43,945 nt of DNA, from positions 1-43,945 of the IMG/VR virus record IMGVR_UViG_3300037189_030748, one strand, 5' to 3'. The notes under the pieces were generated by a model that saw nothing but the letters and a program-made list of their open reading frames with translations, made no database searches and had not been told where the DNA came from. This document shows, piece after piece, positions 100 through 42,963 of the stretch. The position numbers and the translations under genes were made by a program. Numbering within the stretch: the stretch's first letter is position 1; each line of letters opens with the position of its first letter. Origin of the DNA: a virus.

Positions 100-1707
100 T
101 TATCCCCTGTAGATCCACGCTAGTTCAGGCGGGATCATTCCTTGTTGCTGTCGTCGACCGCCCGTAACAAGATCTCTCTTTGCCTGGACGTTTCTAATGT
201 GCTCGTTCTGACTAATACTATTCGAAACTCCGTTAAAGTGTTTAGTATTGACTGACATTGCTGCTAACATTGCCTTATTAATTTCGCTGGATCCCTTTGA
301 ATGATCAGCAGAAGCATCATACAACCAAGTTCCGATTGCTAACGACATCACAAGATCATCATTCTCACCTTTCATAGCAGAAACTTTATTATCCTGCCAG
401 ACGAAAGTTTTTAGTTCATCATAAAAACGTGATGAGTATGTGATGATCTGTTTATTTCGTATTAACTCCTCGAGTTTTGTCAGAATTAAACCACGTGTCT
501 TACCACTCGTGCTAAACCCCGCAAGATCTGTATTACCCGCCGGGATGTAATCACCGATATAAACCGCCGTGCTCTTCTGATAGTACATCTTGGGATAATG
601 AAGATCCCTTAGACGGATGATCGTGGCGTACCCGTACGTGTTGTTCTCTGGACAGAGTAGTGCCTTATTGTAAAGTAACCCGAATTCATTCAGAAGGTCA
701 CCGAACCTATCTGGAGCCACTTTCCCACGGTACTCTGCGACTACTTCGCCAGTTTCAAGATCAATCACATGAAAGGTTGAAAAATCTTTGCTGTCACCTC
801 GAGCGATGTCTGCAGAAATCACATACTTTCTTTCTGAAAGTGGATATTTCCACACCCATACATTTCTATCAAACCCTATCCGATCAACGGGCGCCTTGAT
901 ACAAGAGTAAACCCACTTAATGTCATCGTCACCCAAGAATGTTTCACCTGATGACGCGAAATCGCACAGATACTCCTGTGCGATCTGTCTTGCTGACATA
1001 TTGCGTGTTTCTTTATCGAACCATTCTTGATCTCGCTCTGGATGCACATCCCATGTCAGCTTAATTGATTTAAACTCATTGATACCTGCTTCAGCATCCT
1101 TGAATAGCTTGTAATACTGACCGCCAACACCGTTAGGCGTTGAAAGTAGAATGGCGCGTCCACCTGTCGAGATAGTAGGGTAAAGACCCGTCCAAAGCTC
1201 ATCAAAGTTCTTAACGAATGCCGCCTCATCGACGATTAGTAATGAAAGAGACTCTGAACGACCTGCATCATCTGACGTTGGAATAGCTTTGATTGAGCTA
1301 CCGTGACTAAATTCCACTACCTGTTTATTGTCAGAGACGATCTTAGGAAGAATTAACCACGGTGGTAGATTCCTAAGGATGGTTTTTGTCTTCTTGATGA
1401 AGTTCTGTGCGACCTGGAGTTTCGTAGCGATGATTAGAATGTTCTTATCTTTCTGAAAAAGCGCTAACCAAACTGCATAAGCAGCAACCAAGGTTGAAAG
1501 GCCGAGCTGCCTTCCTTTAACAACGACTGTGAATCGATTCTCAATAAAATCTTTGACACAGTCATCCTGGAATGGGAATGTTTTAAAAGGCAACAAACCC
1601 CTGGTCGGATGTTGGATCTTAACGTAGGTATTGAAGAAATAAGATGGATCTTTACCACACCTTATTATTTCTTGGACCTGCTTATTCTTATGTGGAATAG
1701 ACGTCAC
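100..1707 (-). CDS. terL: Terminase large subunit (gp17-like ATPase-nuclease)
   Basis: This is the DNA-packaging motor: an N-terminal ATPase drives DNA into the prohead and a C-terminal RNase H-fold nuclease cuts the concatemer. The Walker A-like motif is KGRQLGLST at residues 64-72, Walker B with catalytic Glu is LLIVDEAAF at 156-164, and the coupling motif LLSTPNG is at 187-193. The nuclease acidic residues sit in SADIARGD (298-305), CPENN (352-356) and GENDD (447-451). Length (535 aa) fits the T4 gp17 class (about 600). The start is GTG at 1705-1707, sharing its first G with the TAG stop of the upstream gene, so translation is probably coupled. There is no nearby ATG that would keep the N-terminal region. 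The portal gene follows immediately. Confidence 0.96.
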   Translation of the reverse strand: MTSIPHKNKQVQEIIRCGKDPSYFFNTYVKIQHPTRGLLPFKTFPFQDDCVKDFIENRFTVVVKGRQLGLSTLVAAYAVWLALFQKDKNILIIATKLQVAQNFIKKTKTILRNLPPWLILPKIVSDNKQVVEFSHGSSIKAIPTSDDAGRSESLSLLIVDEAAFVKNFDELWTGLYPTISTGGRAILLSTPNGVGGQYYKLFKDAEAGINEFKSIKLTWDVHPERDQEWFDKETRNMSARQIAQEYLCDFASSGETFLGDDDIKWVYSCIKAPVDRIGFDRNVWVWKYPLSERKYVISADIARGDSKDFSTFHVIDLETGEVVAEYRGKVAPDRFGDLLNEFGLLYNKALLCPENNTYGYATIIRLRDLHYPKMYYQKSTAVYIGDYIPAGNTDLAGFSTSGKTRGLILTKLEELIRNKQIITYSSRFYDELKTFVWQDNKVSAMKGENDDLVMSLAIGTWLYDASADHSKGSSEINKAMLAAMSVNTKHFNGVSNSISQNEHIRNVQAKRDLVTGGRRQQQGMIPPELAWIYRG

Positions 1708-2308: not shown

Positions 2309-5300
2309 CTATTCGCATGTGACTTTTGCAAATCCGTCCTCCCAGCTGATATCGATAACATTGTCGACGATGTCCTTGATTGCATCAACATGTGAAATAA
2401 TAAGAATATTTTTGAAATAGTTCTTCAGATTTGTCAAAAGACGCGCACATGCTTCAAGGTTATTGTCGTCAAGTGCACCAAATCCTTCATCAATGATCAA
2501 CATGCTAGATTTTGGAAGAGACGAGATATTCGTAAGCGCAACGCGAATCGCGATTGATGAAATCATCTTTTCCATACCCGAACCTAATTCAATGAGTCGT
2601 CGACTGTCACCGTAATTGAGGTAAATTTCAACAGAGTTTGTGTCATCACACTCCACTTCAACCGTGAAGCCTGCGATGCCATCAAGAATCTCAGCAATTT
2701 CAGCATTCAGCCTAGGAAGCGCACGCATGATGACATCCTGCGGGACTCCCTTCTTGGAGAAAGCTGCCTCCAGTATCTCAAGAACACGAACTGTTTCCTG
2801 AGCGGATGACAACTCTGACATCTGGGTCTTAATCTGGTTTATCTTTTCCGAATTAATTCCGATATCTGTGGCGCACGTGATAGATTTCTGCTCAAATTTC
2901 TTTAGATCTGCTTGAAGTTTATCAATACGTGAATCGTCAGTGTCGTCTAATCCCACAAGCTTTTCGGAGAGATCGTCAATTTTCTTAGAAAGTAAAGTGT
3001 GTTCTTCTTGCTTACTGCGCAACCTCTCAGACGCAATAACGATCTTCGACTCATGCTTGCTCAGTTCAATATTGAGATCTTTCTTCAGATCTTTGATTTT
3101 ATTGGCTTTTTGCAGACCACCTGCGGGATTATTTGCCGTTAAAGAAGCAGATCGATTTTTTAGAATCGTGATAGAACGGTCTTTATTGTCGATCTGCTGG
3201 TCTATAGTAGGAAGCTTTTCCTTGTTCTTGTGTGAATCACAGATAAACTGACAAGTGGGGAATTGACCCATGCAAGGAACTTTATCTAATAGCTCAACCG
3301 ACTTGGCGAGCATCTCTCGCTCGCGCTTTTTTGACTTCAAATCACGTTCATCAGCATCAATCTGATGCGTGATGACACGTTGATCATCCGCTGACTTTTC
3401 TAGTTCATCGAAATTTATACCCGCAAGAACAGATTCGGCTTTTTCAAGCTTTTCTTTAATCCCTCTTGACTTTTCTTCTTCGTCATTTAGCTGATTCTTT
3501 AGTCGCTCAATCTCTTGTTCAAGATTACTCTTATCATTCTTGTGCTTGTTTAAATCTCGACGATTCTTAACAATATCTTGAGGAATCTTGCTGGCAATTG
3601 CAGCGATATCATTCCTGAGACGATCGGCTTCATTAAGGCAGTACTCTTTTTCTGCCTGGAGTTCTTCAATCTTTTTCTCAAAGTTTTCAATTAAAGATTG
3701 ACACTCTTGCTCTGACTTTGCATTCTTGAGCTTTGCCTTAAATGGTGAAATATCAGATTTGACACGATTTTGCAGTTCTTCAAGATAATCAATATCAAGA
3801 AAACGTGTCAGCATCTGCTTTCTTGCAGTCGATTTCTCATCAATGAAAAGATTCATATTGCCTTGCGGCGCCAAACACGTATAGAAAAAATCTTCAGAAG
3901 TTCCAATCATTTTTCGAAGAATTTTCTCTGTTTCACGTCGCTGTTCATCATTAAGATCGATGCTTTCAGCAATTTCAGTACCCATCTTTGTGACTGACAG
4001 GGTTGTCGATGCCCACACGTCTGCTTTCTTTGGGAAGTTCTTGGTCGTCTCTCGAAAAACCTCGTAGCTGTTTGATGCAATTGACAGATTGACTCGAGAA
4101 CGACAGGAATTCTTTTTTGCATTGATGACGTGCAAATTTTTAAGACTACCCCTATCTGTCGTATTAAAGAGAGAATAGACGATTGTCCCGATGATTGATG
4201 ACTTACCTGACCTGTTCTTACCAAAAATTCCCGTGATTCCTGGGAGAGATCGAAAATCTATGTAATTGTTCTCGCCATAAGCAAACAGATTGTCGAAATC
4301 AATACGATTTAGATCCCACTTGATATTTCTAATTGATTCATCACTTCCCTCACGTGAAGAGAGATAATAGTCAAGCCTGGAAAGAGCTGCTTCTGTCACA
4401 GGGCCGGCAGGAACTCTATTGACAATGTAATCAACGAGTGCCTGTTTGACATCGATTGTTGAGTTAGCTTCAATTATCTTATTTTCTGTCGTTTCAAGCT
4501 CTGAATTTGTCTTGTAAGTGATTTCAATCGGCGATAGATCAGTTTCAATCTGATGACAAAATTTCTTTAATTTGTCTGTGTTTTTTGAACGAACATCGAG
4601 CCTAATTCTTGAAAACTTAGGTAGGCTTTTGATAACTTCTTGCGCATCGGTTAAATCTGACCATTCAATGGTATAAAAAGGATGAACATTTTTAACAGGA
4701 TGAAAATTGACATCAAAATCATCACGCGATCTGATGTCCCACATCAGAAAGCCTTTGACAAGTTCTTCTGAATAGTTCTGCTGAATAGTTGAACCACAAT
4801 AAGCAATTGTTCTCTGCTTGTTTAGAAACTGCCTCCTGTGAATATCACCCAAAAGTGAAAAATCAAATTTTTCAAAGAATGAGAGCGTTGTCTCACCCTC
4901 AAGCTCATAATCGGTATCTGAAAGGGCACCTTGAACGGATCCGTGATATAACGCTATGTTGATGGTGCCCCTTTCAGGCTTAACATCTTTCCAGCCATCT
5001 CTATCAAAAAGTGAAAAAACATAGAATTTGACGCTTGCATCAATTGTATCATAGATTCCTGACTGCTTTAATAATCTAATTCGTGGGTCATTAAGTGCAG
5101 CAATAATTGGAGAGACAGCATCCTGTCGACCCTTGTTCATAATAAGGCCGTCATGATTGCCAAGGAGGACATCAACGGGCGCAATCTCAGCTAATGATTT
5201 AAACCACCAGCTAAGAATATCAATCAACTCAGGTGTGATGCCCTGTGTCTTTGAATGGACAATATCACCCCCGATATAGATTAAATCGGGCTTGAGATTG

Positions 5301-5395
5301 CGAAGTGTCTTAAAAGCATCTTCGAAAGCTTCACGGTATTCAGCGTGTCTAGCGAGCCCACGAAAATGAACATCTGCAAAATGTGCTATCTTCAT
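2309..5395 (-). CDS. Mre11-Rad50 (SbcD-SbcC, gp47-gp46) fusion protein
   Basis: One uninterrupted 1028-residue frame contains both halves of the recombination nuclease that phages and bacteria normally encode as two genes. Residues 1 to about 360 are a calcineurin-like nuclease: DVH at 8-10, GGDIVHS at 42-48, GNHD at 79-82, H151, and GDIH at 183-186. Residues about 365-1028 are an SMC-type ATPase: Walker A GKNRSGKSS at 392-400, coiled coils about 540-700 and 730-860 with an apex at 705-725, signature LGSGMEK at 937-943, Walker B MLIIDEGF at 965-972, D-loop ALDD at 974-977 and the switch His at 1002. The complex processes DNA ends for recombination-dependent replication. All key residues look intact. 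The apex lacks the usual CxxC zinc hook. No good Shine-Dalgarno sequence is visible before the ATG. Confidence 0.94.
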   Translation of the reverse strand: MKIAHFADVHFRGLARHAEYREAFEDAFKTLRNLKPDLIYIGGDIVHSKTQGITPELIDILSWWFKSLAEIAPVDVLLGNHDGLIMNKGRQDAVSPIIAALNDPRIRLLKQSGIYDTIDASVKFYVFSLFDRDGWKDVKPERGTINIALYHGSVQGALSDTDYELEGETTLSFFEKFDFSLLGDIHRRQFLNKQRTIAYCGSTIQQNYSEELVKGFLMWDIRSRDDFDVNFHPVKNVHPFYTIEWSDLTDAQEVIKSLPKFSRIRLDVRSKNTDKLKKFCHQIETDLSPIEITYKTNSELETTENKIIEANSTIDVKQALVDYIVNRVPAGPVTEAALSRLDYYLSSREGSDESIRNIKWDLNRIDFDNLFAYGENNYIDFRSLPGITGIFGKNRSGKSSIIGTIVYSLFNTTDRGSLKNLHVINAKKNSCRSRVNLSIASNSYEVFRETTKNFPKKADVWASTTLSVTKMGTEIAESIDLNDEQRRETEKILRKMIGTSEDFFYTCLAPQGNMNLFIDEKSTARKQMLTRFLDIDYLEELQNRVKSDISPFKAKLKNAKSEQECQSLIENFEKKIEELQAEKEYCLNEADRLRNDIAAIASKIPQDIVKNRRDLNKHKNDKSNLEQEIERLKNQLNDEEEKSRGIKEKLEKAESVLAGINFDELEKSADDQRVITHQIDADERDLKSKKREREMLAKSVELLDKVPCMGQFPTCQFICDSHKNKEKLPTIDQQIDNKDRSITILKNRSASLTANNPAGGLQKANKIKDLKKDLNIELSKHESKIVIASERLRSKQEEHTLLSKKIDDLSEKLVGLDDTDDSRIDKLQADLKKFEQKSITCATDIGINSEKINQIKTQMSELSSAQETVRVLEILEAAFSKKGVPQDVIMRALPRLNAEIAEILDGIAGFTVEVECDDTNSVEIYLNYGDSRRLIELGSGMEKMISSIAIRVALTNISSLPKSSMLIIDEGFGALDDNNLEACARLLTNLKNYFKNILIISHVDAIKDIVDNVIDISWEDGFAKVTCE

Positions 5396-5422
5396 AAAGC
5401 AATTTTAATGCGTGTTTTAGAA

Positions 5423-5731
5423 CTATTCAACTTTCATTCGATGAATAATTTCGGCAATCTTAAAAATCTTCTGATTCATCATATCATCTTCAAAAGATTC
5501 ATCTTCCATTCTATCGTAAATGTCAATTGCGCTCTCAATCATTGAGTAAAGCGCGTATTTTGGAGTGACGTAATCTTCTTTACCCGAGCAATCGTCACAA
5601 TCGCAATCACTGTCACATTCTTCACCTGCGACAGGATCATCAAGATCACCGGGCAAATCACGTCGCTTGTACAACGCATCATCTTGAATGACTGATCTGA
5701 TTATGTTTCTCAATTCTTTTATGTTTGTCAT
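5423..5731 (-). CDS. Acidic hypothetical protein with a Cys-Asp cluster
   Basis: A 102-residue, strongly acidic protein. Its centre holds ECDSDCDCDDC (about residues 38-48), four cysteines interleaved with aspartates, flanked by helical segments: an N-terminal one (NIKELRNIIRSVIQ) and a C-terminal one rich in Met, Glu and Asp. I do not recognise the family. The cysteine spacing could bind a metal, but it is not a standard zinc finger. It lies between the primase and the SbcD-SbcC fusion in the replication island, so an accessory role in DNA metabolism is plausible from position only. The ATG is 11 bases after the primase stop. Confidence 0.75.
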   Translation of the reverse strand: MTNIKELRNIIRSVIQDDALYKRRDLPGDLDDPVAGEECDSDCDCDDCSGKEDYVTPKYALYSMIESAIDIYDRMEDESFEDDMMNQKIFKIAEIIHRMKVE

Positions 5732-5736
5732 ATTAC

Positions 5737-5743
5737 TAAATAT
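5737..5743. promoter_or_regulatory. ATATTTA motif at the primase/acidic-protein border
   Basis: Third copy of the heptamer, minus-strand context GATATTTAGTAATATG, overlapping the primase stop and 11 bases before the ATG of the 102-aa gene. It is very close to the start codon for a promoter of that gene, so it weakens as much as it supports the promoter idea. Confidence 0.12.
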
Positions 5744-6711
5744 CAGAACAATGTCCCACTTCTTATCATGCTGATCTTTGATAACAAACTTGTCTTACTG
5801 GACCAAGGAACAAGCTCATTCATCGATTTCTCAATCTGTTCTTTTGTCATTGATCCCACATCTTTCTCACCCAGGAGAGGAAAAATTTTGACATCACAGC
5901 CATAACTGATCAAGATGTCAGCGATCTTGTTTGATTTTGTAATAACATCGCTGTCAAGCGCAAGGATTACGCTTGCTTCATTTGCAACGAGTTTCTTAAA
6001 AAGGTAGCTAGATTCAGGCAAGCTTGACCCTAAAAGACAAACACTGTTTCTTCCAAGACGAATTTGATCAAAAACACCTTCAACTAAGACGATCGGCTCA
6101 TCCCAGTCAATGTCACACTCATTAAAAATGATCTTCATTTTATCGACATTCGAATTGACATATCTTTGCCGTGAGTGATCATCTATACTACGAGATACGA
6201 AATAGTTTTCTTCACCCTCATCATCAAGCGAGATAAAATAAGCACGTCGAGGATCGCGTCCATCAGGAGTGACACCCACACGAAACTTGTAAAAGTCTGC
6301 TTCTGTCAATGACCGAGAACGAAGATAAGAGATGACTGATCGAATGTTAGGGTTTTTAGAATCTAAGACACTGACAAGTGGAACAAACTCATCAGGGTAC
6401 TCAAACTTCTGCTCTTCAAGCACATCATTGGTGTCATCTTTGTCAAATTTCTGATTTAAGAAAGATTGTCTGTAAAAATTTATTACATCTTTACTTGCAA
6501 ACTTCCTAAGGACGGGGAGGAGCGTCTTTCCCTTTGTCCCGCAAACCCAACAGTGGAAATTCCACGTGGATAAAGAAACTGAAAGTTTCTTCTTTTTTGT
6601 GTCCTTGCAGATAGGACAAGAGACAGCGATATCATTGCCGTCTCTTGAGATTGAGCCCTTTCCGAAGGTTTTTTCGACAAAGATAATTTTTTCTGTGTAA
6701 GTTGGCTGCAC
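5743..6711 (-). CDS. DNA primase (zinc finger plus TOPRIM)
   Basis: A 322-residue DnaG/gp61-type primase that would make RNA primers for lagging-strand synthesis. The N-terminal zinc-binding region has CPIC at 32-35 and CWVC at 54-57, with the aromatic-rich strand STWNFHC between. The TOPRIM fold has the catalytic glutamate in LVEGVFD (209-215) and the second acidic motif ILALDSD (249-255). It is shorter than bacterial DnaG (about 580) and lacks the C-terminal helicase-binding domain, as phage primases often do. The start is GTG at 6711, which places the zinc domain at the normal distance from the N-terminus. The gene sits between the RuvC-like nuclease and the acidic Cys protein. Confidence 0.9.
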   Translation of the reverse strand: MQPTYTEKIIFVEKTFGKGSISRDGNDIAVSCPICKDTKKKKLSVSLSTWNFHCWVCGTKGKTLLPVLRKFASKDVINFYRQSFLNQKFDKDDTNDVLEEQKFEYPDEFVPLVSVLDSKNPNIRSVISYLRSRSLTEADFYKFRVGVTPDGRDPRRAYFISLDDEGEENYFVSRSIDDHSRQRYVNSNVDKMKIIFNECDIDWDEPIVLVEGVFDQIRLGRNSVCLLGSSLPESSYLFKKLVANEASVILALDSDVITKSNKIADILISYGCDVKIFPLLGEKDVGSMTKEQIEKSMNELVPWSSKTSLLSKISMIRSGTLF

Positions 6712-6733
6712 TCTTAATTTGTCTGCGACGCGG

Positions 6734-7267
6734 CTATTCTTTACAACCCTTTAAACCTGCTAGCGCGATGACATAGGCATCTGCCATGTCGAAGCAGATC
6801 TCCTTGATTTCGCCCGTCTTTTTCAGGGGCCAATCAACCTCAGTGACACAGCTAACCCAGTTAAAAACTTTCTGTTTTGTTGTTATTGATTTGTCTTTAT
6901 GATCAATTTTAATCTTAAGATGATTTCTGGCATTCACAACACCTAACGACACGGGTACAACACCAAACACCTGATAGGTTATGAAATCGCAAGCACCGTT
7001 AAATCTTGCAAGTGTATTGATAGTATGCGCAGATGATAAACCTCTACGAAAAGATGAGAGATTCTGCTCAATATAGATCTCATCAATTTTATGAGATTTT
7101 GAAATCTCTTCAAGAGATGTCCTCACAAAATTGCATTTTTCAATAAATGTTTTGTGCTTTGTAAGAACAATGGGATGAATTAACTGGATCTTTCCGCTAT
7201 CATCAAGACAGCAGACGCCCGTGCAAGAAGTTGAAATGTCAAGTCCTAAAATCTTCTTAGAAGTCAT
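6734..7267 (-). CDS. RuvC-like Holliday junction resolvase
   Basis: A 177-residue RNase H-fold endonuclease of the RuvC type. It starts with the strand carrying the first catalytic aspartate, ILGLDISTSCTGV (D10), has the second acid in DEIYIEQNLSSFRRG (E67), and the last pair in CFDMADAYVIALAG (D160 and D163). The length matches bacterial RuvC (about 170). It would resolve branched DNA made by recombination-dependent replication and clear it before packaging. The ATG overlaps the end of the upstream tail gene by 11 bases, so a DNA-repair gene is fused in expression to the virion operon. Primase and SbcD-SbcC follow. The exact substrate preference cannot be read from the sequence. Confidence 0.88.
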   Translation of the reverse strand: MTSKKILGLDISTSCTGVCCLDDSGKIQLIHPIVLTKHKTFIEKCNFVRTSLEEISKSHKIDEIYIEQNLSSFRRGLSSAHTINTLARFNGACDFITYQVFGVVPVSLGVVNARNHLKIKIDHKDKSITTKQKVFNWVSCVTEVDWPLKKTGEIKEICFDMADAYVIALAGLKGCKE

Positions 7268-9608
7268 ATCTTAGACGGAACACAATCTCGTCACCTTCAC
7301 GTTTTTGAACTGCTTGGGCGAGCTTGGCACGCATAATAACATTAAGATTTTCGTCGTGCAAGTTAATGCCTGTAATATAAACGAAATCATCAGCTTGCTC
7401 AGAACGAAGCTGGGTGGGTGGAAATTGCTTATACGTGGGATTGTAAGAGGTATTCACTGAACCTGCTGTGGCAGGAACTGTGTAATTAGCAACTGATTTT
7501 CTGACCTCTCCTCTAAATGTCATCTCAAATGCATTCTTTCCAAAATAGGGAAGATGTGGAGACAAAATCGATACGATACCCTGGGGATAGAAGATGGCAC
7601 CCACGCGATTCCATTTTGCGTGCCCCGTTTTGGCGTCAGCGCGATAGAGATTCCCTCTGCCATCGTCCTTTAATGTGAAAGATAGACCGCCAGAACCTGA
7701 AACGTTAGGATCTGTTATCACAAATGAACCGGGAACGATGCGATTCAAAAAGTAGGCATTTGGAATCGAAAAGATAGTGACTCGATTCGAGCTATTATCA
7801 ACTCTAGTGGTTGTTCTAGAAAGATAATTTTTATCTTGGTAAAGTGGCAAATACGGCCAATCAGTCCCGTCATATGAGAAATCTGAAAATTCGGCACCTG
7901 GAATATAAGTTCCTGATGGTACAAGCGATTCAAGTGACAAAAACATTGAATCTTTTCGACCTGCTACAATCTGGAATCTTGTATCATCCTTGATGACGCT
8001 AAAGTCAGGAGAAAAATTACCATCATCACAGGGCAAAATGGAAAAATTTCTTCGTCTATTGATCGATTGACTCATTAAAAGGTTGTCAACTGAGTCGTAT
8101 CTTGAATCAAATGGTGTAGTGATTGTGCTACCCTCACTCATACCATTTAGACGAGGTTGTTTCTTCTTTGAAAAGTCTATTGTAAAATTTTGAAGATTTA
8201 AATAGTAGGCATTGTAGCCTGCTGATAACTGGTATGAAAATGGGCTGTCAGTTGTCCGTAATGATCGTATTGTAGGCGTATCATACGTCTTATAAAGATC
8301 TACGGATGATGTAAAAAAGGGTGCAACAAAAAAGCTGGGGCCCCTCGTGTCCGATGACGAAGGATAAAGATCATTAATTTTTAATAATTCTTGATCACCA
8401 AGATATCTCTTGAAAAGAGATAGATGATGAAGCTCTGCGTTGAGTTGATGTGCAAATTTATAGTTATTGGGATCTGCGGTCCCGAATATGGGATCTTGTT
8501 CGGTGCCATATTCAACGCTTGCAAGACTATTAAAAAATTTTGCTATTCTATCACCAGAATCATAATAGTTGCCAATAACAAGCGCGTCATTTGAAACTTT
8601 TGTTGAGATGCTAGCATAGTTCGCGCTAAATGAGTATGAAGCGTCATCTACCTTAATTGAGCCTGATCCATAGCTTCTAGTAGATGATCCCCACCTAATA
8701 GTGACTCTATGCCATGAATCTCTTTTAAGAATATCATCAGATGTAAAGATTAAATCATTAGGTGCTGAAAGCGGGAGTAGTGTTGGATTGATCAACGAAG
8801 GAGCAATATCGGCACTCCGACTTAACTGCAAAAGTATCCTAAAAGATTCTGGTTTTTGATCAATTCCCAGTTCAGAACCGCTAATCAATGAAACGCAAAT
8901 AGAAGACGATAAATGGAAAATAGTCCCTGGATTATAGATTCCGCTTGTTTCTAGTTGTGCTTTAGGCTTAATAAAGAAATCAATCGTAAAGTCATTATCA
9001 GGCGTGTAATCTCGATTGCCCAAAGCATTGGGAAAATTGGGATAAATTATCCCCGATCCTGTTGAGAAATTGTTTGATGAAAGAAAATTTAGGCTATGAT
9101 AATTGACATAACCATATGAAGATAGCGGATTTTCGACAATTTGAGATGGAATTAAGACGCTTCTAAGCGTTCTTCTCTGCAAATTTGTCCATTCGTTATA
9201 ATCTACTGGAACCTTTGCTTCACCAGTTGTGATATTAAAAGAAGGTTCAAGTACAAAATTAGATGAAGTAAATCTTGTTGGAGACGTCGTAAGAAATTGC
9301 GTCCGCTCAACAGCAGAGTCACTTACTTGTGTCAGATAAGACGAAATTAATCCGCTAATATCTTGAACACCAGCAATGTACGCCTGGGATGCAGAGTAAA
9401 GCAGATCACTATCAGATGTGACCCCTGAAGTTTCGACGAAGATAGAACCCGATTTATAAGGATCAAGTGCCAATATCGACTGGGTTGGCTTCGAAGCTAG
9501 ACGGATACTTCCTGTTAGCCCAGATGATGATGACGAGAAAGACTGACTTGGCTGCAAGAGCAGCGTCGTCACCTCGATTAAATCGGGACTAACAGGAATG
9601 ACTGACAT
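7257..9608 (-). CDS. Virion protein with LamG/concanavalin-like domain
   Basis: A 783-residue, Ser/Thr-rich beta protein, most likely a tail or tail-fibre component. Residues about 205-410 look like a LamG/concanavalin-type jelly roll: a start strand NDFTIDFFIKP, a central DSWHRVTIRWGS strand, and an ending strand ELHHLSLFKRYLGDQEL that resembles the usual closing phrase of LamG domains. The final about 30 residues (RAKLAQAVQKREGDEIVFRLRYDF region) match the end of the next gene's product. LamG folds often bind carbohydrate, so host-glycan recognition is an inference. A GAGGGA ribosome site precedes the next gene; this one begins ATG six bases past... the preceding stop lies upstream at 9615, with GAGGGATT directly before this ATG. 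No signal peptide or membrane segment is seen. Confidence 0.85.
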   Translation of the reverse strand: MSVIPVSPDLIEVTTLLLQPSQSFSSSSSGLTGSIRLASKPTQSILALDPYKSGSIFVETSGVTSDSDLLYSASQAYIAGVQDISGLISSYLTQVSDSAVERTQFLTTSPTRFTSSNFVLEPSFNITTGEAKVPVDYNEWTNLQRRTLRSVLIPSQIVENPLSSYGYVNYHSLNFLSSNNFSTGSGIIYPNFPNALGNRDYTPDNDFTIDFFIKPKAQLETSGIYNPGTIFHLSSSICVSLISGSELGIDQKPESFRILLQLSRSADIAPSLINPTLLPLSAPNDLIFTSDDILKRDSWHRVTIRWGSSTRSYGSGSIKVDDASYSFSANYASISTKVSNDALVIGNYYDSGDRIAKFFNSLASVEYGTEQDPIFGTADPNNYKFAHQLNAELHHLSLFKRYLGDQELLKINDLYPSSSDTRGPSFFVAPFFTSSVDLYKTYDTPTIRSLRTTDSPFSYQLSAGYNAYYLNLQNFTIDFSKKKQPRLNGMSEGSTITTPFDSRYDSVDNLLMSQSINRRRNFSILPCDDGNFSPDFSVIKDDTRFQIVAGRKDSMFLSLESLVPSGTYIPGAEFSDFSYDGTDWPYLPLYQDKNYLSRTTTRVDNSSNRVTIFSIPNAYFLNRIVPGSFVITDPNVSGSGGLSFTLKDDGRGNLYRADAKTGHAKWNRVGAIFYPQGIVSILSPHLPYFGKNAFEMTFRGEVRKSVANYTVPATAGSVNTSYNPTYKQFPPTQLRSEQADDFVYITGINLHDENLNVIMRAKLAQAVQKREGDEIVFRLRYDF

Positions 9609-33061: not shown

Positions 33062-33347
33062 TTTGATTAGAATTCCCAAAATTTGAGAGGCTACTAGCAA
33101 TCTTTAGAATCAGTGCTTGACTCTCCCTAATCTCATGAATAACCTGTCGAACTTCGACAGAATCAAAAAACACGGGCTTCTCAAGAATCTTTCCAAAAAT
33201 AGCATATCTCTGGTCAAGTTCATCGAGACTGTCCTCGATGACGTCTTGAATTCTCAGGATAATTATCCCAAATCTAACATTGAAATATACTGAAATTCCT
33301 AATAAAGCTGAAAGTACTAGAAAACAGGTAATTTCAAGAATCATCAT
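33024..33347 (-). CDS. Small membrane protein with N-terminal anchor
   Basis: A 107-residue protein. Residues about 3-31 (ILEITCFLVLSALLGISVYF onward) form one transmembrane helix, followed by an amphipathic, acidic helix and a conserved-looking core LEKPVFFDSVEVRQVIHEIR. The tail is Lys/Glu/Asn-rich and disordered. The most likely topology is anchored with the core in the cytoplasm, as no signal-peptidase site is apparent. I do not know its function. The ATG overlaps the TGA of the upstream glycosyltransferase (ATGA), and its 3' end overlaps the sigma gene start in another frame, so its translation may modulate sigma synthesis. Two adjacent ATGs can start it. Confidence 0.82.
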   Translation of the reverse strand: MMILEITCFLVLSALLGISVYFNVRFGIIILRIQDVIEDSLDELDQRYAIFGKILEKPVFFDSVEVRQVIHEIRESQALILKIASSLSNFGNSNQNEKDQKEINKEE

Positions 33348-34498
33348 TTCAGAATCTCTTGGAAGACGTGTTCGTAGATGCTAAGAATTTTTTCCTTTGA
33401 ATAGAGAGCTTGACACTTTGGTTTTAGCTCATTTGCCCACTGCTTAGGCACTTCAGAAGACTCACGAAACTTTTTTATCTTCTTTTTAAAGTTTGTCTCG
33501 CTTGGCTGAGCCCAACGTGAACCCTTGACAAAGATTCTTCCATCAACCCTTTCATCAGCAATTGGAATAAGAGAATATTCAATCTTTCCCCACTTGCCAA
33601 CATTTAGAAACTCGGTATGTGCTGACCAGTCGGTAGCAATCACAGGTAATCCTGATGCAGCAGCCTCAAGTAAAGGGAGTCCGTATCCCTCACCACGAGT
33701 TAGGCTTACTAACGCCTTAATCTTTGGATGACGATACAGAGAAGAAATCTCTTCATTTGTCATATTTCCATGAATCAAATAAACAGGCATATTACTTGAT
33801 GCACGAACCTGCTTGATGACGTTCTGAAGTGTGACAGATGTTATCTGTTTGTCAATTGTTGTTCCTCGACCGCTATTGGTCTTAATAATAAGTCCAACAT
33901 CTTTATCATTCTCAAATGTCTCACAAATCCACTTAATCGTATCAATGATGTTCTTTCTATCAACTGCTGAACTAGCAGCTGTCATCTGGCTGACGATTAA
34001 GAAATTAAAGGGAGTTCGAAGTTCAAGATCGATCTCTGATGTTGTGTCAGTGATTTCGGGCATGAACCACTCAGGGACCACATAGATTGGTGGATTAACT
34101 TTGCCCGTCTTTTCAAGAACACCCTTAGTAAATTTTGATGGAACAATGATTGCTGACATTTTATTACAGCCATCAATCCAGCTGGGATTACAGATATCAG
34201 TCTCAACTGCAGCTGTTACACCTACGTTGATCTTTGCAAGCTGATCTGACCACTCATCTGGAAGCTGAACTTGGAATGATACATCAAAACCTGATTGCAG
34301 GTCTGATGACTTTCTCATTATTTCACCAACTAATCCATTCTCACTTTCAGTATTAATCAGCCACGATGTATTCCCCCACTGAACAATTTGAGTGAAAATC
34401 TCGACATTGGGAATCTGCTTGACAGCCTCAAAAACTTGTCGACTATGTTGCCCATATCCTGAAATGCTCAGGAGGGGTGCTCTAACAACGACCTTCAT
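33344..34498 (-). CDS. GT4-family glycosyltransferase
   Basis: A 384-residue GT-B fold enzyme. The start strand with glycine loop is MKVVVRAPLLSISGYGQHSR; the C-terminal nucleotide-sugar site has EGYGLPLLEA (270-279), the E-x7-E type motif of family GT4, followed by ASGLPVIATDWSAHTE. It would transfer a sugar from a nucleotide donor with retention; the donor and acceptor cannot be read. I choose ATG at 34498, which overlaps the upstream TGA (TGATG), over the TTG at 34540. It is paired with a second GT4 gene. Possible targets are a virion glycoprotein, phage DNA or a host-surface glycan. Confidence 0.88.
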   Translation of the reverse strand: MKVVVRAPLLSISGYGQHSRQVFEAVKQIPNVEIFTQIVQWGNTSWLINTESENGLVGEIMRKSSDLQSGFDVSFQVQLPDEWSDQLAKINVGVTAAVETDICNPSWIDGCNKMSAIIVPSKFTKGVLEKTGKVNPPIYVVPEWFMPEITDTTSEIDLELRTPFNFLIVSQMTAASSAVDRKNIIDTIKWICETFENDKDVGLIIKTNSGRGTTIDKQITSVTLQNVIKQVRASSNMPVYLIHGNMTNEEISSLYRHPKIKALVSLTRGEGYGLPLLEAAASGLPVIATDWSAHTEFLNVGKWGKIEYSLIPIADERVDGRIFVKGSRWAQPSETNFKKKIKKFRESSEVPKQWANELKPKCQALYSKEKILSIYEHVFQEILK

Positions 34499-35739
34499 CA
34501 AATCTCCTTCAGCGTGAATGTCTTGCGATTCTTCTTCCAATTAGTCACAAGATTAGAAGCTGTTGAATGCCAATCATCAATTGTTTTATCAAAGCTAAAT
34601 TCTGTTCTTGCGTACTCAAAAACCTTCTTGCTGAGATTTTTTCGTTCGGTGTCAGACAAGGAATACATCTTCATGATTGCACGTGCTGTATTCTCGCAGG
34701 TGACAAAATCTTCATAGATGTAGGGAACACCTTGTGAACCGACAAGTGTTTTAAAGTCGATGTCAAGAGCTGCACCATTGTGCGATCCATCTCGATAATC
34801 AACCACCTGTCTAGTCAGACCACCTGTCTTTGCTGCGACAATGGGAACACCAGCATTCATTGCCTCAAGTGTGGCTAGACCAAAGCCTTCAGCAAAAGAG
34901 ATATTGATGCAAAAATCGGAAACATTATACAAGATATTCATCTTGTCAAATCCGAGACGCTCTTTGGAAAATATGATATTTTCTTGAATTCCAAGATGCT
35001 CGGCAACCGCGTAAAGATTTGGCCCTTCCTGATCAAGGGGGTCGGTGTGCAGGATAAGGGTTGCTCGCTTGTGCCCTCGTGTCCTTTGAAGATCATCTAA
35101 GAATATCTTCCAAGACTCTAGAACATCACTTGGACGCTTCCGTCGTGCATTTCTATTAACCCAAATTCCCACAAAGTGATCTAGACGATTCTTGCCAAGA
35201 AGCTGGAGCTTATAGTTGCGCTTCTCTGAATCAGAAAGCGGATAAAAGAGATCCGCTGGAAGAGCGTGTGGAATGAAATTTGTCTTATCAGGGAAGCGAT
35301 CTTTGAGCTGGGTGTATGTCGCATGTGAGTGACAGTTGATTAAGTCAGTAGCCTCATACATGGGCGCATTGAAAGCAGGATAAGGTTCATTATCCCAAAC
35401 ATGCCACCATGCGATAGGACACACCTGATGAATCTCATCTTCCATCTCAAAGAGCCAGACAAAAAATCTTGGGTCTGTAAAAATGAGAATGAGATCGGGC
35501 TTTTCAGTTGCCAAAGTGACCCTTAAAAGGTCTCTATTACCAAAACCATCAATTGGTTTAATGATAAAGTCTTCATTGACAACGATGGTCCTGTAATCAG
35601 AATGCTTGACTGCGGCGCCAAACTGTCTGAATGTCCATCCGCCTCGGTTGAGGAGGCCATTCACAAGGTGACGTGTTTGTGTTCCGACACCTGATGTCGA
35701 GAGAGCGTGGTCAGATAGGATGAGAACTTTCTTTTTCAT
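34498..35739 (-). CDS. GT4-family glycosyltransferase
   Basis: A 413-residue GT-B glycosyltransferase. The N-terminal glycine-rich loop is DHALSTSGVGTQTRHLVNGL (10-29), the basic linker NRNARRKRPSDVLESW (195-210) is typical for binding donor phosphates, and the E-x7-E motif is EGFGLATLEA (284-293), followed by AGVPIVAAKTGG. A WWHVWDNEPYPAF stretch (111-123) is distinctive and may line the acceptor site. It is only weakly like its neighbour, so the two probably add different sugars in sequence. The gene starts with ATG 26 bases after the PD-(D/E)XK nuclease stop and ends in a TGATG overlap with the second transferase. Confidence 0.9.
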   Translation of the reverse strand: MKKKVLILSDHALSTSGVGTQTRHLVNGLLNRGGWTFRQFGAAVKHSDYRTIVVNEDFIIKPIDGFGNRDLLRVTLATEKPDLILIFTDPRFFVWLFEMEDEIHQVCPIAWWHVWDNEPYPAFNAPMYEATDLINCHSHATYTQLKDRFPDKTNFIPHALPADLFYPLSDSEKRNYKLQLLGKNRLDHFVGIWVNRNARRKRPSDVLESWKIFLDDLQRTRGHKRATLILHTDPLDQEGPNLYAVAEHLGIQENIIFSKERLGFDKMNILYNVSDFCINISFAEGFGLATLEAMNAGVPIVAAKTGGLTRQVVDYRDGSHNGAALDIDFKTLVGSQGVPYIYEDFVTCENTARAIMKMYSLSDTERKNLSKKVFEYARTEFSFDKTIDDWHSTASNLVTNWKKNRKTFTLKEI

Positions 35740-35765
35740 TTTTTAATCACACATAAACATAAACT

Positions 35766-36578
35766 TTAAGTGGAAGAAGTAAATGCAGGATATTCTATAG
35801 ATCCTGAACAATGCTCTGTTCCCTTAAAATCACAATATGTGCATGCCATCCTGTTTTTAAGAGATTTTCCAGAAGCGACTCCTTTGATCATTGAGTTCAC
35901 AAGCTTATTGGCGTTTTCCAGCGTTTTTGGGCCCACCGATACTTCAACCAGCTCGCATGCTTTTCCTTTTTTAGCGCCCCTCTTGAGCAGAACAAAGCCA
36001 CACTTTATTTCTTTTGGATCGATCTCAAATTTTTGACTGGTGAAATACTTGTACAATGCAAGCTGTGCCTGAACAAGGAAGTCTTGACGCTTGTCAAGTG
36101 ACCACCCACGAGCGCTTGTCGTCTTCCAGTCAATAATCCAGAGTCTATCTTGATTCTTCTTATTCTTGGCACGAATCATTCCGTCGATAAAGCCCTTGAA
36201 CTTTATATCGCTGCCTTCGATATTCTCGTAAAGAGCATGCTCTGCAGCAATGAATTCCCAGCTGGGGAATGTTTCATCAAGAAAAGTAGGAATTTCATCA
36301 ATGATCTGCTTGGCTTCATTGATCCAAGAATCAGGCTTTTCAAAACCCTTTTGAGACCAGCAGGTTTTAATGTTATTTTCAAGACGTTCTAGATTGAATG
36401 TCTTTTTCTGGAGATATTCTTCACATTCAGCGTGAACATATGTTCCAAAGTCAATATTAGGACTTGGTTTAAACATGTCAATCTTGTCAACATAGACAAG
36501 TTTATGACGCCAAGCGCATTCTTTCCACGTCTTTACTTCGGAATATGAGACGTGGGGCTTTCCAGTAGGAAAAATCAT
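35766..36578 (-). CDS. PD-(D/E)XK nuclease, Cas4/AddB-like with probable Fe-S cluster
   Basis: A 270-residue RecB-type nuclease. Catalytic motifs are visible: His in GTYVHAECEE (H49), first Asp in FKGFIDGMI (D132), IIDWKTTSARGW (D150, K152) and QAQLALYKY (Q170). One Cys near the N-terminus (C21, KECAWRHK) and three near the C-terminus (C246, C249, C257, ACTYCDFKGTEHC) match the arrangement that binds a 4Fe-4S cluster in Cas4 and AddB. Such enzymes act as DNA exonucleases with end-specificity. No CRISPR genes are near, so a recombination, repair or host-DNA degradation role is more likely. GAGG lies five bases before the ATG, within a possible hairpin. It is the first gene after the sugar block. 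Confidence 0.88.
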   Translation of the reverse strand: MIFPTGKPHVSYSEVKTWKECAWRHKLVYVDKIDMFKPSPNIDFGTYVHAECEEYLQKKTFNLERLENNIKTCWSQKGFEKPDSWINEAKQIIDEIPTFLDETFPSWEFIAAEHALYENIEGSDIKFKGFIDGMIRAKNKKNQDRLWIIDWKTTSARGWSLDKRQDFLVQAQLALYKYFTSQKFEIDPKEIKCGFVLLKRGAKKGKACELVEVSVGPKTLENANKLVNSMIKGVASGKSLKNRMACTYCDFKGTEHCSGSIEYPAFTSST

Positions 36579-36581
36579 TTA

Positions 36582-36606
36582 AACCTCGTAAGAATTATAT
36601 GAGGTT
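36582..36606 (-). promoter_or_regulatory. Hairpin overlapping the nuclease ribosome-binding site
   Basis: On the minus strand AACCTC (36606-36601) can pair with GAGGTT (36587-36582) across a 13-base loop. The right arm contains the GAGG Shine-Dalgarno sequence five bases before the nuclease ATG, so the stem would hide it. Six pairs is modest; a regulatory role is a guess. Confidence 0.3.
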
Positions 36607-36650
36607 ATTAATAATTTTATTAGTTGACCCTATTTAAATTTAGGATAACT

Positions 36651-36670
36651 AAAAATTTACTTTAAAGTAA
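36651..36670 (-). terminator. AT-rich palindrome plus T-run at the end of the sugar block
   Basis: Just after the epimerase stop the minus strand has the perfect palindrome TTACTTTAAAGTAA (36670-36657) followed by ATTTTT (36656-36651). It has the form of a weak intrinsic terminator, or an operator. It marks the border between the glycan genes and the nuclease/glycosyltransferase genes. The remaining gap bases to 36607 are AT-rich with nothing else recognised. Confidence 0.35.
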
Positions 36671-36674
36671 TCAA

Positions 36675-37661
36675 TTATTTTTGAATTAAAGAAAAAATCC
36701 ATTTATAAGTTGTAGTCATTCCAGCCCTTAAAGGCTGTGATACTTTCCAACCAATTTTTTCTTCATAAAGTTTATTATCAGAATTCCTTCCTCGAACACC
36801 CGTGGGACCATCAATATGCTTTACATTGATTTTTTTGCCCTCTATGTCAGATATCATAGAAACAAATTGATTAATGCTGACCATCTCCTCAGATCCAATA
36901 TTGACAGGACCAAGAAAATCTGAATTCATTAATCTCAATGTTGCCTCAACACACTCATCTACGTACAAGAAGCTTCGCGTCTGTTCGCCATCACCCCACA
37001 CTTCAATCTCACCTCCGTCCTGAACAGCAGCAATCTTTCGGCAAAGTGCGGCAGGTGCTTTTTCCTTTCCATTGTTCCATGAGCCAAAAGGACCAAAGAT
37101 ATTGTGATATCTTGCGATTCTCACATCTAATCCATAGTTTCTGTTATAAGCGAGATAAAGTCTTTCACTAAAGAGTTTTTCCCATCCATATTCACTGTCA
37201 GGTGCAGCAGGATAAGCACTGTCTTCCGAACATTTTGGATTTTCCGGATCTTCCTGATTATAGGCGGGATACATGCAAGCCGATGATGAATAAAAAATCT
37301 TGGGCTTATTTTTAAACTTAATAGCCGTGTCAGCAACATTCAGATTAATTGTTGCTGAGTTATGCATTACATTGGCATCATTTTCGCCCGTAAAAATATA
37401 GCCTGCCCCTCCCATATCGGCAGCCAACTGATAGACCTCTTGAAAACCTTCATCCCATGAATCGCTTGTCTTCATGACAGTCTGAACGACGGTAGGATTT
37501 CGAAGATCACCGATGACAAAATCATCTGCTATCTCACGAATGTTAGTAAATTCATGCTCCTTAATATCAACGCCGCGAACCCAATACCCAAGCTCCTTAA
37601 GACGTTTGACTAAATGGCCACCGATAAATCCGCCAGCCCCACATACTAATGCTTTCTTCAT
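36675..37661 (-). CDS. GDP-mannose 3,5-epimerase
   Basis: A 328-residue short-chain dehydrogenase/epimerase strongly resembling plant GDP-mannose 3,5-epimerase, which makes GDP-L-galactose and GDP-L-gulose from GDP-D-mannose. NAD is bound at the N-terminal CGAGGFIGGH. Family marks are YQLAADMGGAGYIF, the catalytic Cys in SSACMYP (C129), the Tyr/Lys pair in EYGWEKL (Y158, K162), NGKEKAPAALCRK with Lys (K201), WGDGEQTRSFLYVDECVEA, and NIGSEEMVSINQF. I choose ATG at 37661 with AAGGAA nine bases upstream, although an ATG at 37670 overlaps the upstream TGA. Last gene of the sugar block. Its product could feed the fucosyltransferase-like enzymes, because L-galactose differs from L-fucose only at C6. 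Confidence 0.9.
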   Translation of the reverse strand: MKKALVCGAGGFIGGHLVKRLKELGYWVRGVDIKEHEFTNIREIADDFVIGDLRNPTVVQTVMKTSDSWDEGFQEVYQLAADMGGAGYIFTGENDANVMHNSATINLNVADTAIKFKNKPKIFYSSSACMYPAYNQEDPENPKCSEDSAYPAAPDSEYGWEKLFSERLYLAYNRNYGLDVRIARYHNIFGPFGSWNNGKEKAPAALCRKIAAVQDGGEIEVWGDGEQTRSFLYVDECVEATLRLMNSDFLGPVNIGSEEMVSINQFVSMISDIEGKKINVKHIDGPTGVRGRNSDNKLYEEKIGWKVSQPLRAGMTTTYKWIFSLIQK

Positions 37662-37662
37662 A

Positions 37663-38310
37663 TCACTCATTTCCTTTTGTGAAAAGAAAATTTTCCCCAT
37701 CAAAAATCTTTTTAACTTGATAGTTTATTGATTTCATGAATTCTACAGCATGTTTAGGCTCATAGCCTCTTTTCGACAGAGCATGATTTAACTCTACCAT
37801 TACAATAGGATCATGTTTAATTAGAACTTCTTTGCAACCTTGCAAGACTTCAAAATCATATGAATCAACGTCGATTTTAATCAAATCTGGCTTGATTTCA
37901 TTATTCTTTGAAAAAGAATCAATTGTCATAAATTCAAATTCTTTTGTTTCTATCACATTTTGTGACCAAATTTTATAAATTGTATCTGTGTAAATTCCAT
38001 CTTTATTTGACAAAGCAACATTATGAACAAAAACATTTTTACAATTATTATAAATTAAATTTTCATTTAATAAATTGACAGTGTCAGTTGGTTCAAAAGC
38101 ATAAACAACACCACTTGCAGCAAGTTTACTAAATAACACAGTATACATGCCAATTTGAGCACCAGCATCAATTATTTTAAAATGAGGCTTTATGACATCA
38201 ATAAAATATTGTTTTGTATCTGATTCGGCCGACATATACCAACTTGCATCTTTGCTATAGTAATTTGGAAAAGAGTATGAAACACCTTTTCCATATGATA
38301 CATTCAGCAT
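37663..38310 (-). CDS. FkbM-family methyltransferase
   Basis: A 215-residue SAM-dependent methyltransferase. Motif I is IDAGAQIGMYT (47-57), the acidic ribose-binding end of strand 2 is YAFEPTD (70-76), and the FkbM-typical LIKIDVDSYDFEVLQG stands near 143-158, followed by MVELNH. FkbM-type enzymes usually O-methylate sugars or small hydroxyl groups. It is one of four small methyltransferases in a row, linked by TAATG overlap to its upstream neighbour, and it ends just inside the epimerase start. O-methylation of the glycan made by this block is the natural reading. The acceptor is unknown. Confidence 0.85.
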   Translation of the reverse strand: MLNVSYGKGVSYSFPNYYSKDASWYMSAESDTKQYFIDVIKPHFKIIDAGAQIGMYTVLFSKLAASGVVYAFEPTDTVNLLNENLIYNNCKNVFVHNVALSNKDGIYTDTIYKIWSQNVIETKEFEFMTIDSFSKNNEIKPDLIKIDVDSYDFEVLQGCKEVLIKHDPIVMVELNHALSKRGYEPKHAVEFMKSINYQVKKIFDGENFLFTKGNE

Positions 38311-38885
38311 TAAACGGTCCTTTTCATCTGGGGGACAAAAACACCAACTCCTGCACCAATTTCACTTTCTTCTACGCAATAGTGTCTATAATCATTTCCA
38401 TAAATCAAATCCATAGAGGGCTTCACGTAGAGAAAATCTAGATTTTGATTTCTATACCTGTCAAATCCAAATTTTGGTGCGCCATGTTCATCTGGAACAT
38501 AAAAATCATGAACGAGTATTACTGGTTTTAATCTTTTTTCTTTTATAATTCTAAGTTCATCTAAAATAGGCCAATATTCTCCCCAGTGTGCATCGAGAAA
38601 GAATAAGATATTAGTCTCATCCACAGGAATAATTTTTTCAATTACTTCTTGTGATGATCCTAAATAAAAATCTATATTAGAATGATGGTTATTAAAATTC
38701 TTGGCAATATTGTGTAAATTTGAATCTATTTCTATCGTGATTATCTTTTTACCAGTTTTAGCTAAAACATTTGTTGACCATCCCTTATAGGTTCCAGTTT
38801 CAACAATAGTTTTTATATCATATCCAGTAATTAGACGATCTAATTCGGATTGCAAATATTTGTCTTCAAATGCACCTTTTATCAT
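38310..38885 (-). CDS. Class I SAM methyltransferase
   Basis: A 191-residue Rossmann methyltransferase. SAM-binding motif I is VETGTYKGWSTNVLA (28-42), strand 2 ends in ITIEID, and ILFFLDAHWGEYWPILDELR (93-112) is the acidic, probably metal- or substrate-binding motif seen in sugar O-methyltransferases of the CmcI/TylF-like type; LVHDFYVPDEHG follows. It differs from the FkbM type of its neighbours in this LDAHW phrase. Both gene ends overlap neighbours by TAATG. Predicted role: O-methylation within the glycan pathway, acceptor unknown. Confidence 0.8.
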   Translation of the reverse strand: MIKGAFEDKYLQSELDRLITGYDIKTIVETGTYKGWSTNVLAKTGKKIITIEIDSNLHNIAKNFNNHHSNIDFYLGSSQEVIEKIIPVDETNILFFLDAHWGEYWPILDELRIIKEKRLKPVILVHDFYVPDEHGAPKFGFDRYRNQNLDFLYVKPSMDLIYGNDYRHYCVEESEIGAGVGVFVPQMKRTV

Positions 38886-39598
38886 TACATGTCTCCCGAT
38901 AAATTATTGTAATCCTTTGGGATGTCAATAATCTTATTAATAAATCTTAGGTTGTCACTGTATCGACTATAAAATTCAAAACCATTTTCTGTCATATATT
39001 CCATAATTTCTTTATGATTAGCAGCAGAATGATAATAAACTGTAGAATCATCTTCAATATCAAGATAACAAATATTTTTAAGGTGATTTCTTAAACTCTT
39101 GACAATATCTAAGTCTTTTCCTTGTGCATCAATTTTTATCAATTCAATTATATCATACTTTATCTGATTTAACATTAGATATAAAGGAAAGGTTTCTACT
39201 TTTATTACCTTATCAATTGCACAACCTTTAATGTTGTGAATTTTTGGTTCTAATAAACTTGAACAACCTACATTTCCACTTAATAGATAAAATGATTTTT
39301 CAACGATAGAATCTACATTGTCACATGCACCAATTACATGATAGTAATTGTCTCCTTGAGGATGACTTTCAAATTCATCCTTAATATTCCAAAAACGACC
39401 TTGCCAACTATTAGGCTGATCATAACAGCCAGGATTAGGTTCTATTCCAATAACGTATCTATCATTAAAATGATTAAACCAGTGTCTAGTGACAGGTGCA
39501 CTGATAGAAGTTCCGATGTCAAATCTTATTTTCTTTCCTTCCTGGATCTTCTGATTAACTATTTCATAAGAAAAATCACTAAATGATGAAACATTCAT
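38885..39598 (-). CDS. FkbM-like methyltransferase
   Basis: A 237-residue protein with an FkbM-like layout: motif I KIRFDIGTSISAPVTRHW near 23-40, strand 2 VIGIEPNPG (49-57), and IIELIKIDAQGKDLDIVKSL (about 150-169), the family's conserved strand. The glycine-poor motif I (DIGTSISAP) is a departure from the usual DxGxNxG and may mean altered SAM binding. It overlaps the next gene by ATGA and the previous by TAATG. Role in glycan methylation is inferred from the neighbours. Confidence 0.75.
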   Translation of the reverse strand: MNVSSFSDFSYEIVNQKIQEGKKIRFDIGTSISAPVTRHWFNHFNDRYVIGIEPNPGCYDQPNSWQGRFWNIKDEFESHPQGDNYYHVIGACDNVDSIVEKSFYLLSGNVGCSSLLEPKIHNIKGCAIDKVIKVETFPLYLMLNQIKYDIIELIKIDAQGKDLDIVKSLRNHLKNICYLDIEDDSTVYYHSAANHKEIMEYMTENGFEFYSRYSDNLRFINKIIDIPKDYNNLSGDM

Positions 39599-42953: not shown

Positions 42954-42963
42954 ATCGTCATTC

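What the first reader, a model, noticed from the sequence alone, without database searches (positions are those of the whole stretch)
2309..5395. Mre11 nuclease and Rad50 ATPase fused into one phage protein
Seen: a single frame has all SbcD/gp47 metal-binding motifs (residues 8-186) and then all SbcC/gp46 ATPase motifs (392-1002) with no stop between. Known: in T4 and in bacteria these are separate genes. Inferred: a fixed 1:1 ratio and a tethered nuclease, perhaps altering the hinge by which ATP binding controls nuclease access. The linker around 310-365 replaces the usual Mre11 C-terminal helices that bind the Rad50 coiled coil.
Basis: partly seen in the sequence, partly recalled or inferred. 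Interest (0 to 1): 0.62.

Follow-up and report, generated by a model that had tools for sequence, protein, structure and literature searches.

The report
Known phage Mre11–Rad50 fusion protein
A tailed-phage genome fragment encodes the DNA-break-processing nuclease Mre11 and its ATPase Rad50 as one protein; the fusion is real, but it was described in 2011 and is common among aquatic phages, so this is an ordinary member of a known kind.

Summary
On the minus strand, 5395..2309 is one uninterrupted 1028-codon frame with every Mre11/SbcD metal-site motif (D8–H186) and every Rad50/SbcC ATPase motif (G392–H1002). It is not an assembly artefact: an independent IMG/VR contig carries it at 100% protein identity, and 99 of 112 related loci checked hold the full-length fused frame.

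The novelty does not hold. Yoshida, Claverie and Ogata (2011, PMC3175470) described Mre11/Rad50 fusions in Mimivirus, a Bacillus phage, plasmids, bacteria and eukaryotes. They argued that abundant aquatic viral homologues belong partly to phages and noted primase genes beside them, as here. Two isolated phages (Microcystis Mel-JY01, Tenacibaculum pT24) carry unremarked copies.

Residues 316–346 are predicted to form the usual Mre11 C-terminal helix–loop–helix and align with the same region of E. coli SbcD; a linker of about 12 residues then leads to Rad50.

Most likely it works as an ordinary Mre11–Rad50 complex in a homodimer, in phage recombination and replication. Modest details: a metal-ligand His is replaced by Asp, and the zinc hook is usually Cx6C rather than CxxC.

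The parts
2309..5395 (-). Fused Mre11(SbcD)-Rad50(SbcC) gene, 1028 aa
   Evidence: Open frame; Pfam and PHROG hits on both halves; at least 99 intact homologous fused frames
4751..5395 (-). Mre11 nuclease domain, residues 1-215: DVH 8-10, GDIVH 43-47, GNHD 79-82, H151, GDIH 183-186
   Evidence: Motifs invariant or nearly so in 48 fused proteins; Pfam Metallophos; model
4502..4750 (-). Mre11 capping domain, residues about 216-298
   Evidence: Alternating strands and helices 214-296 in the model; Foldseek match of the model to S. aureus SbcD nuclease plus capping domain 7dog
4358..4450 (-). Helix-loop-helix, residues 316-346 (predicted Rad50-binding domain of Mre11)
   Evidence: Predicted helices 316-327 and 332-346, pLDDT block means 74-87; profile alignment through E. 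coli SbcD 214-399 and T. maritima Mre11 203-375
4322..4357 (-). Linker, residues 347-358, joining the Mre11 half to the Rad50 half
   Evidence: No secondary structure between helix 332-346 and strand 359-368
3770..4321 (-). Rad50 ATPase lobe I, residues 359-542, Walker A GKNRSGKS 392-399, Q511
2744..3769 (-). Antiparallel coiled coil with apical hook, residues about 543-884; hook C708-x6-C715, with C719 and H722
   Evidence: Helices 537-705 and 716-879 with the turn between them; C708 in 40 of 48 and C715 in 48 of 48
2309..2743 (-). Rad50 ATPase lobe II, residues about 885-1028 and stop: signature SG 939-940, Walker B DE 969-970, D976, H1002
   Evidence: phmmer to archaeal and Thermotoga Rad50 structures
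5743..6711 (-). DNA primase (DnaG-like), upstream neighbour
   Evidence: phrog_47 E 3e-37; primase upstream in 85 of 90 related loci with enough flank
6734..7267 (-). RuvC-like Holliday junction resolvase
   Evidence: phrog_159 E 7e-11; present in 75 of 90 related loci
100..1707 (-). Terminase large subunit (T4-like), downstream
   Evidence: Pfam Terminase_6N, phrog_2; downstream in 87 of 96 related loci

Best explanation
This is a phage Mre11-Rad50 (SbcD-SbcC) fusion, a member of a widespread family of fused phage proteins. Two copies most likely form a homodimer equivalent to the usual M2R2 complex. The Mre11 halves dimerise, and each helix-loop-helix packs on a Rad50 coiled-coil base. ATP-driven engagement of the Rad50 lobes controls nuclease access, and the coiled-coil apices may join through a metal hook. 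By analogy with T4 gp46/gp47 it processes DNA ends, giving 3' overhangs for recombination-dependent replication and contributing to break repair and possibly host-DNA degradation. The fusion, the motifs, the gene neighbourhood and the absence of a separate Rad50 in 11 large relatives are shown here. Domain folds are predicted. The dimer, the catalytic activity and the role in replication are inferred.
For: Intact frame with both motif sets. Model with nuclease, capping domain, helix-loop-helix, short linker, ATPase lobes and long coiled coil, mean pLDDT 85. Foldseek matches to Mre11-Rad50 structures 7zr1, 7yzp, 5dny, and to full-length fused giant-virus and phage proteins from Tupanvirus, Harvfovirus and Tenacibaculum phages pT24 and PTm1. 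Profile alignment through the C-terminal region of SbcD. Conserved neighbourhood of RuvC, primase, fusion, terminase. Only one SbcC-like match above trace level in each of 11 large records of 133-320 kb. Published precedent including the linker-length argument (PMC3175470). In the T4 system, ATP supports processive exonuclease activity of Mre11 (PMC13402864).
Against: No biochemical data exist for any phage fusion that I could find. The overall pTM of the model is 0.49, so the relative placement of the two halves and the hook (block pLDDT 66-68) is uncertain. The profile of split phage Mre11 proteins aligned only to about residue 270, so the helix-loop-helix assignment rests on SbcD and T. maritima profiles plus the model. 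One metal ligand differs from canonical Mre11 (GDIH for GHxH).
Confidence: 0.88

Rival explanations
1. Assembly or sequencing error: two separate genes joined by an indel that removed a stop and start pair.
For: This can happen: Listeria phage LMTA-57 has a 1009-aa fused frame in a group whose relative WIL-1 has two genes, which may be such an error or a recent fusion.
Against: An independent contig has the gene at 100% protein identity; 99 of 112 checked loci keep an intact fused frame, with identities to the window protein down to 20-28%; the linker region is aligned throughout the family.
Confidence: 0.01
2. The fused frame is real but the product is split, by protease cleavage in the disordered stretch 298-311 or by internal initiation, so it works as two subunits.
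For: Residues 298-311 have pLDDT below 50; a GTG at codon 333 lies near the junction.
Against: The codon-333 GTG would cut the second helix of the helix-loop-helix and has no evident ribosome site. No other start codon occurs between codons 331 and 390. The fused frame is retained through great sequence divergence.
Confidence: 0.05
3. The fusion changes the mechanism: the linker replaces the helix-loop-helix and tethers the nuclease differently, altering ATP control.
For: Only that the two halves are covalently joined.
Against: Predicted helices 316-327 and 332-346, alignment through SbcD 214-399, and a linker close to the 9-12 residues calculated for the native geometry in PMC3175470.
Confidence: 0.06
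4. A defence or counter-defence ATPase-nuclease (Lamassu-like) rather than a replication and recombination protein.
For: PADLOC LmuB matches the Rad50 half, E 1e-27.
Against: LmuB is itself Rad50/SMC-like, so the match is expected. The protein carries a complete Mre11 nuclease half and sits in a conserved replication and packaging cluster.
Confidence: 0.03

Closest known systems
Mre11/Rad50 fusion proteins (Mimivirus R555, Bacillus phage 0305phi8-36 and others; Yoshida, Claverie and Ogata 2011, PMC3175470)
   Same: N-terminal Mre11, short linker, C-terminal Rad50. R555 has the same two substitutions in the metal motifs (GDxxH and Asp for the first His of GHxH) as described in that paper. Aquatic metagenome homologues lie beside primase genes.
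   Different: Shorter than R555 (1028 against 1351 aa). Unlike phage 0305phi8-36 as described, it keeps the capping and helix-loop-helix regions. Found on long contigs with clear tailed-phage genes. R555 itself could not be aligned here.
Fused proteins in isolated phages: Microcystis phage Mel-JY01 (PP395634, 1066 aa) and Tenacibaculum phage pT24 (NC_049383, 1310 aa)
   Same: Single frame with both halves; Mel-JY01 aligns over the full length at 28% and has the primase upstream.
   Different: Annotated only as 'AAA domain containing protein' and 'metallo-phosphoesterase'; Mel-JY01 has a CxxC hook; pT24 is very divergent.
T4 gp47/gp46 and Herelleviridae SbcD/SbcC-like pairs
   Same: Homologous domains, same gene order (nuclease gene first), same inferred role.
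   Different: Two genes; GHxH in motif V; CxxC hook. The sampled split pairs fall on the other side of one branch from all sampled fusions (100/99).
Cellular SbcCD / Mre11-Rad50
   Same: All catalytic and ATPase motifs, capping domain and helix-loop-helix.
   Different: Two genes, usually a longer coiled coil, CxxC hook.

Membership tests
Mre11/SbcD nuclease (calcineurin-like phosphoesterase) | Motifs DxH, GDxx(D/H), GNH(D/E), H, GHxH | tested here: met
   All five present, with one substitution: motif V is GDIH, with Asp in 47 of 48 relatives, as reported for Mimivirus R555
Mre11/SbcD nuclease (calcineurin-like phosphoesterase) | Capping domain and C-terminal helix-loop-helix that binds Rad50 | tested here: met
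   Predicted structure and profile alignment to SbcD 214-399 and T. maritima Mre11 203-375; contact with the coiled coil itself was not measured
Rad50/SbcC ATPase | Walker A, Q-loop, ABC signature, Walker B, D-loop, His switch in a split head | tested here: met
Rad50/SbcC ATPase | Long antiparallel coiled coil between the two lobes | tested here: met
   Helices 537-705 and 716-879
Rad50/SbcC ATPase | CxxC zinc hook | tested here: not met
   C708-x6-C715 instead; 40 of 48 fused proteins have Cys at the first position and all have the second. It is therefore filed as a Rad50-like ATPase with a variant hook; all catalytic features are met, and other fusions of the same family do have CxxC
Mre11/Rad50 fusion proteins | Both halves in one continuous frame, Mre11 first | tested here: met
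Mre11/Rad50 fusion proteins | Nuclease and ATPase activity | not testable with these tools
   Needs purified protein
Lamassu (LmuB) | LmuB with its LmuA effector and LmuC | tested here: not met
   LmuB model matches the Rad50 half, but the genes on either side are primase, RuvC, terminase and small phage proteins

The most novel reading that the evidence does not exclude
The phage fusions are one old lineage, fused once, with a remodelled metal site (Asp for His in motif V) and a new kind of hook (C-x6-C, often followed by a His), and the fused giant-virus proteins such as Mimivirus R555 derive from it. If so, this is a distinct Mre11-Rad50 subtype with its own metal chemistry at both the nuclease and the hook.
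Probability: 0.25. Interest if true: 0.42.

Novelty: new member of a known kind. Interest (0 to 1): 0.18.

Why it matters
The fusion itself was published in 2011. What the long contigs add is a confirmation that paper could not make. It had only a few complete environmental fusions and asked for longer reads; here the fusion sits in clear tailed-phage genomes, in a conserved RuvC-primase-fusion-terminase block, as the only SbcC-like gene. It also shows an annotation gap: public libraries name such proteins by one half only. A single-chain Mre11-Rad50 of about 1030 aa could be a convenient, stoichiometry-locked model enzyme.

Tried and rejected
An assembly-error explanation was rejected by independent contigs. 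Plasmid search: only split or partial matches. GenBank accessions EF583821 and NC_009760, tried from memory for Bacillus phage 0305phi8-36, are not in the collection, so the published phage example was not re-examined. Profile comparison with split phage Mre11 proteins stopped at about residue 270 and did not settle the helix-loop-helix; the SbcD profile search did. No Rfam intron was found around the insertion in LR756508. Coordinates of the model are not given out, so contact between helix-loop-helix and coiled coil could not be measured. The tree has long branches and its sampling was seeded with the fused protein, so a single origin of the fusion is only suggested.

Full report
What is there. 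The gene lies on the minus strand, 5395 to 2309, one frame of 1028 codons without a stop. Pfam assigns residues 1-187 to Metallophos and gives weaker matches of the C-terminal part to SMC_N and SbcC_Walker_B; PHROG_77, the phage SbcC family, matches 278-1025 at E 4e-54. PDB sequence searches hit Rad50 with the C-terminal part and Mre11/SbcD with the N-terminal part.

It is not an artefact. The window is an IMG/VR virus record of 43,945 bases. Another IMG/VR contig (L005) carries the gene at 100% protein identity, with one mismatch over 13 kb. A single-sequence scan returned 33 loci, most with full-length matches at 22-100% identity. Of 112 loci in which I found a fused frame, 99 are complete at both ends by my criteria; several others run off a contig end or miss a pattern.

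It is already known. Yoshida, Claverie and Ogata (Virol J 2011, PMC3175470) described Mre11/Rad50 fusions in Mimivirus R555, Bacillus phage 0305phi8-36, plasmids, bacteria and eukaryotes. They showed that R555 homologues are abundant in aquatic viral fractions, suggested that some belong to phages, and listed primases among the neighbouring genes. The window protein has the same two departures from the metal motifs that the paper reports for R555: His for the third Asp (GDxxH) and Asp for the first His of GHxH. T4 has GDxxD and GHxH, and Twort and Eldridge have GDxxH and GHxH, so only the second is specific to the fusions in this sample. Public records also hold unremarked fusions in Microcystis phage Mel-JY01 and Tenacibaculum phage pT24. 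Foldseek against viral models puts fused giant-virus proteins (Tupanvirus, Harvfovirus, Yasminevirus) and pT24 near the top over the whole length.

Structure and the linker. The AlphaFold2 model (48 sequences, mean pLDDT 85, pTM 0.49) shows nuclease, capping domain to about 296, a disordered stretch 298-311, helices 316-327 and 332-346, and a linker 347-358. The Rad50 lobe starts at strand 359, and a coiled coil runs 537-705 and 716-879. A profile of residues 170-357 aligns with E. coli SbcD 214-399 and T. maritima Mre11 203-375, through the C-terminal helices. The linker length agrees with the 9-12 residues calculated in PMC3175470 for joining the native partners. The low pTM means the placement of the halves relative to one another is not established, and I could not measure contacts.

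Surroundings and role. Order in transcription: RuvC-like resolvase, primase, small ORF, fusion, two small ORFs, terminase large subunit. In related loci with enough flank, a primase lies upstream in 85 of 90, RuvC in 75 of 90, and terminase downstream in 87 of 96. In 11 large records (133-320 kb) the fusion is the only SbcC-like protein, apart from two trace coiled-coil matches in Mel-JY01, and the Metallophos matches include the fused frame in each. This fits a T4-like recombination and replication role. In T4, ATP is required for processive exonuclease activity of Mre11 (PMC13402864). The role in this phage is inference.

Evolution. In a tree of 31 fused proteins and 8 concatenated split phage pairs, all fusions lie on one side of one branch (100/99). 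This is compatible with one fusion event, but the sample was found with a fused query and has long branches. Listeria phage LMTA-57 has a fused frame in a group with split genes, which may be a later fusion or a sequencing error.

Details that may be new. Most fusions have a hook C-x6-C followed by F-I-x-x-x-H rather than CxxC. T4, Twort, Eldridge and Ochrobactrum phage OC have CxxC, as do several fusions including Mel-JY01. I found no paper on this variant in two searches, which do not cover all journals.

Verdict. Real, correctly read, but an ordinary member of a described and abundant family, with one claim about its anatomy contradicted.

Noticed in passing
window 3230-3274 (residues 708-722): The hook is C-x6-C, with C719 and H722, instead of CxxC; first Cys in 40 of 48, second in 48 of 48, His in 32 of 48 fused relatives. 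L109 and L114 have CxxC although they fall among Cx6C members in the tree, which hints at hook exchange or reversion.
   Followed up: partly
L002 (LR756508.1) 4944-9169: In this 484-kb uncultured phage the fused gene is interrupted shortly after the GDIH motif by a separate 305-codon ORF that looks like a homing endonuclease; no Rfam intron was found.
   Followed up: partly
L040 3-180: The frame begins with an intein-like C-terminus (SGN, then Cys) placed directly at the GNHD active-site motif, suggesting an intein in this homologue.
   Followed up: no
L130 3417-6446 (Listeria phage LMTA-57): Fused 1009-aa frame in a Herelleviridae group with split genes (WIL-1, L126): recent fusion or sequencing error.
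   Followed up: partly
window 33344-43746: Sugar and methyl modification cluster: two glycosyltransferases, an epimerase, a UDP-glucose/GDP-mannose dehydrogenase, an NAD synthase-like protein and several methyltransferases.
   Followed up: partly
window 35766-36578: PD-(D/E)XK nuclease of the RecB/Cas4 kind (Pfam PDDEXK_1, E 4e-24) beside the glycosyltransferase cluster.
   Followed up: partly
L038, L039, L042, L043: Fused genes on contigs binned as Halobacteriovorax, an archaeon, Nitrosopelagicus and a gammaproteobacterium; L038 clearly, and the others probably, are phage contigs mis-binned into MAGs, so host cannot be read from them.
   Followed up: no
window 2309-5395: No NCBIfam or Pfam model describes the fusion; NCBIfam matches are all far below cut-off, so pipelines name it by one half.
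   Followed up: yes
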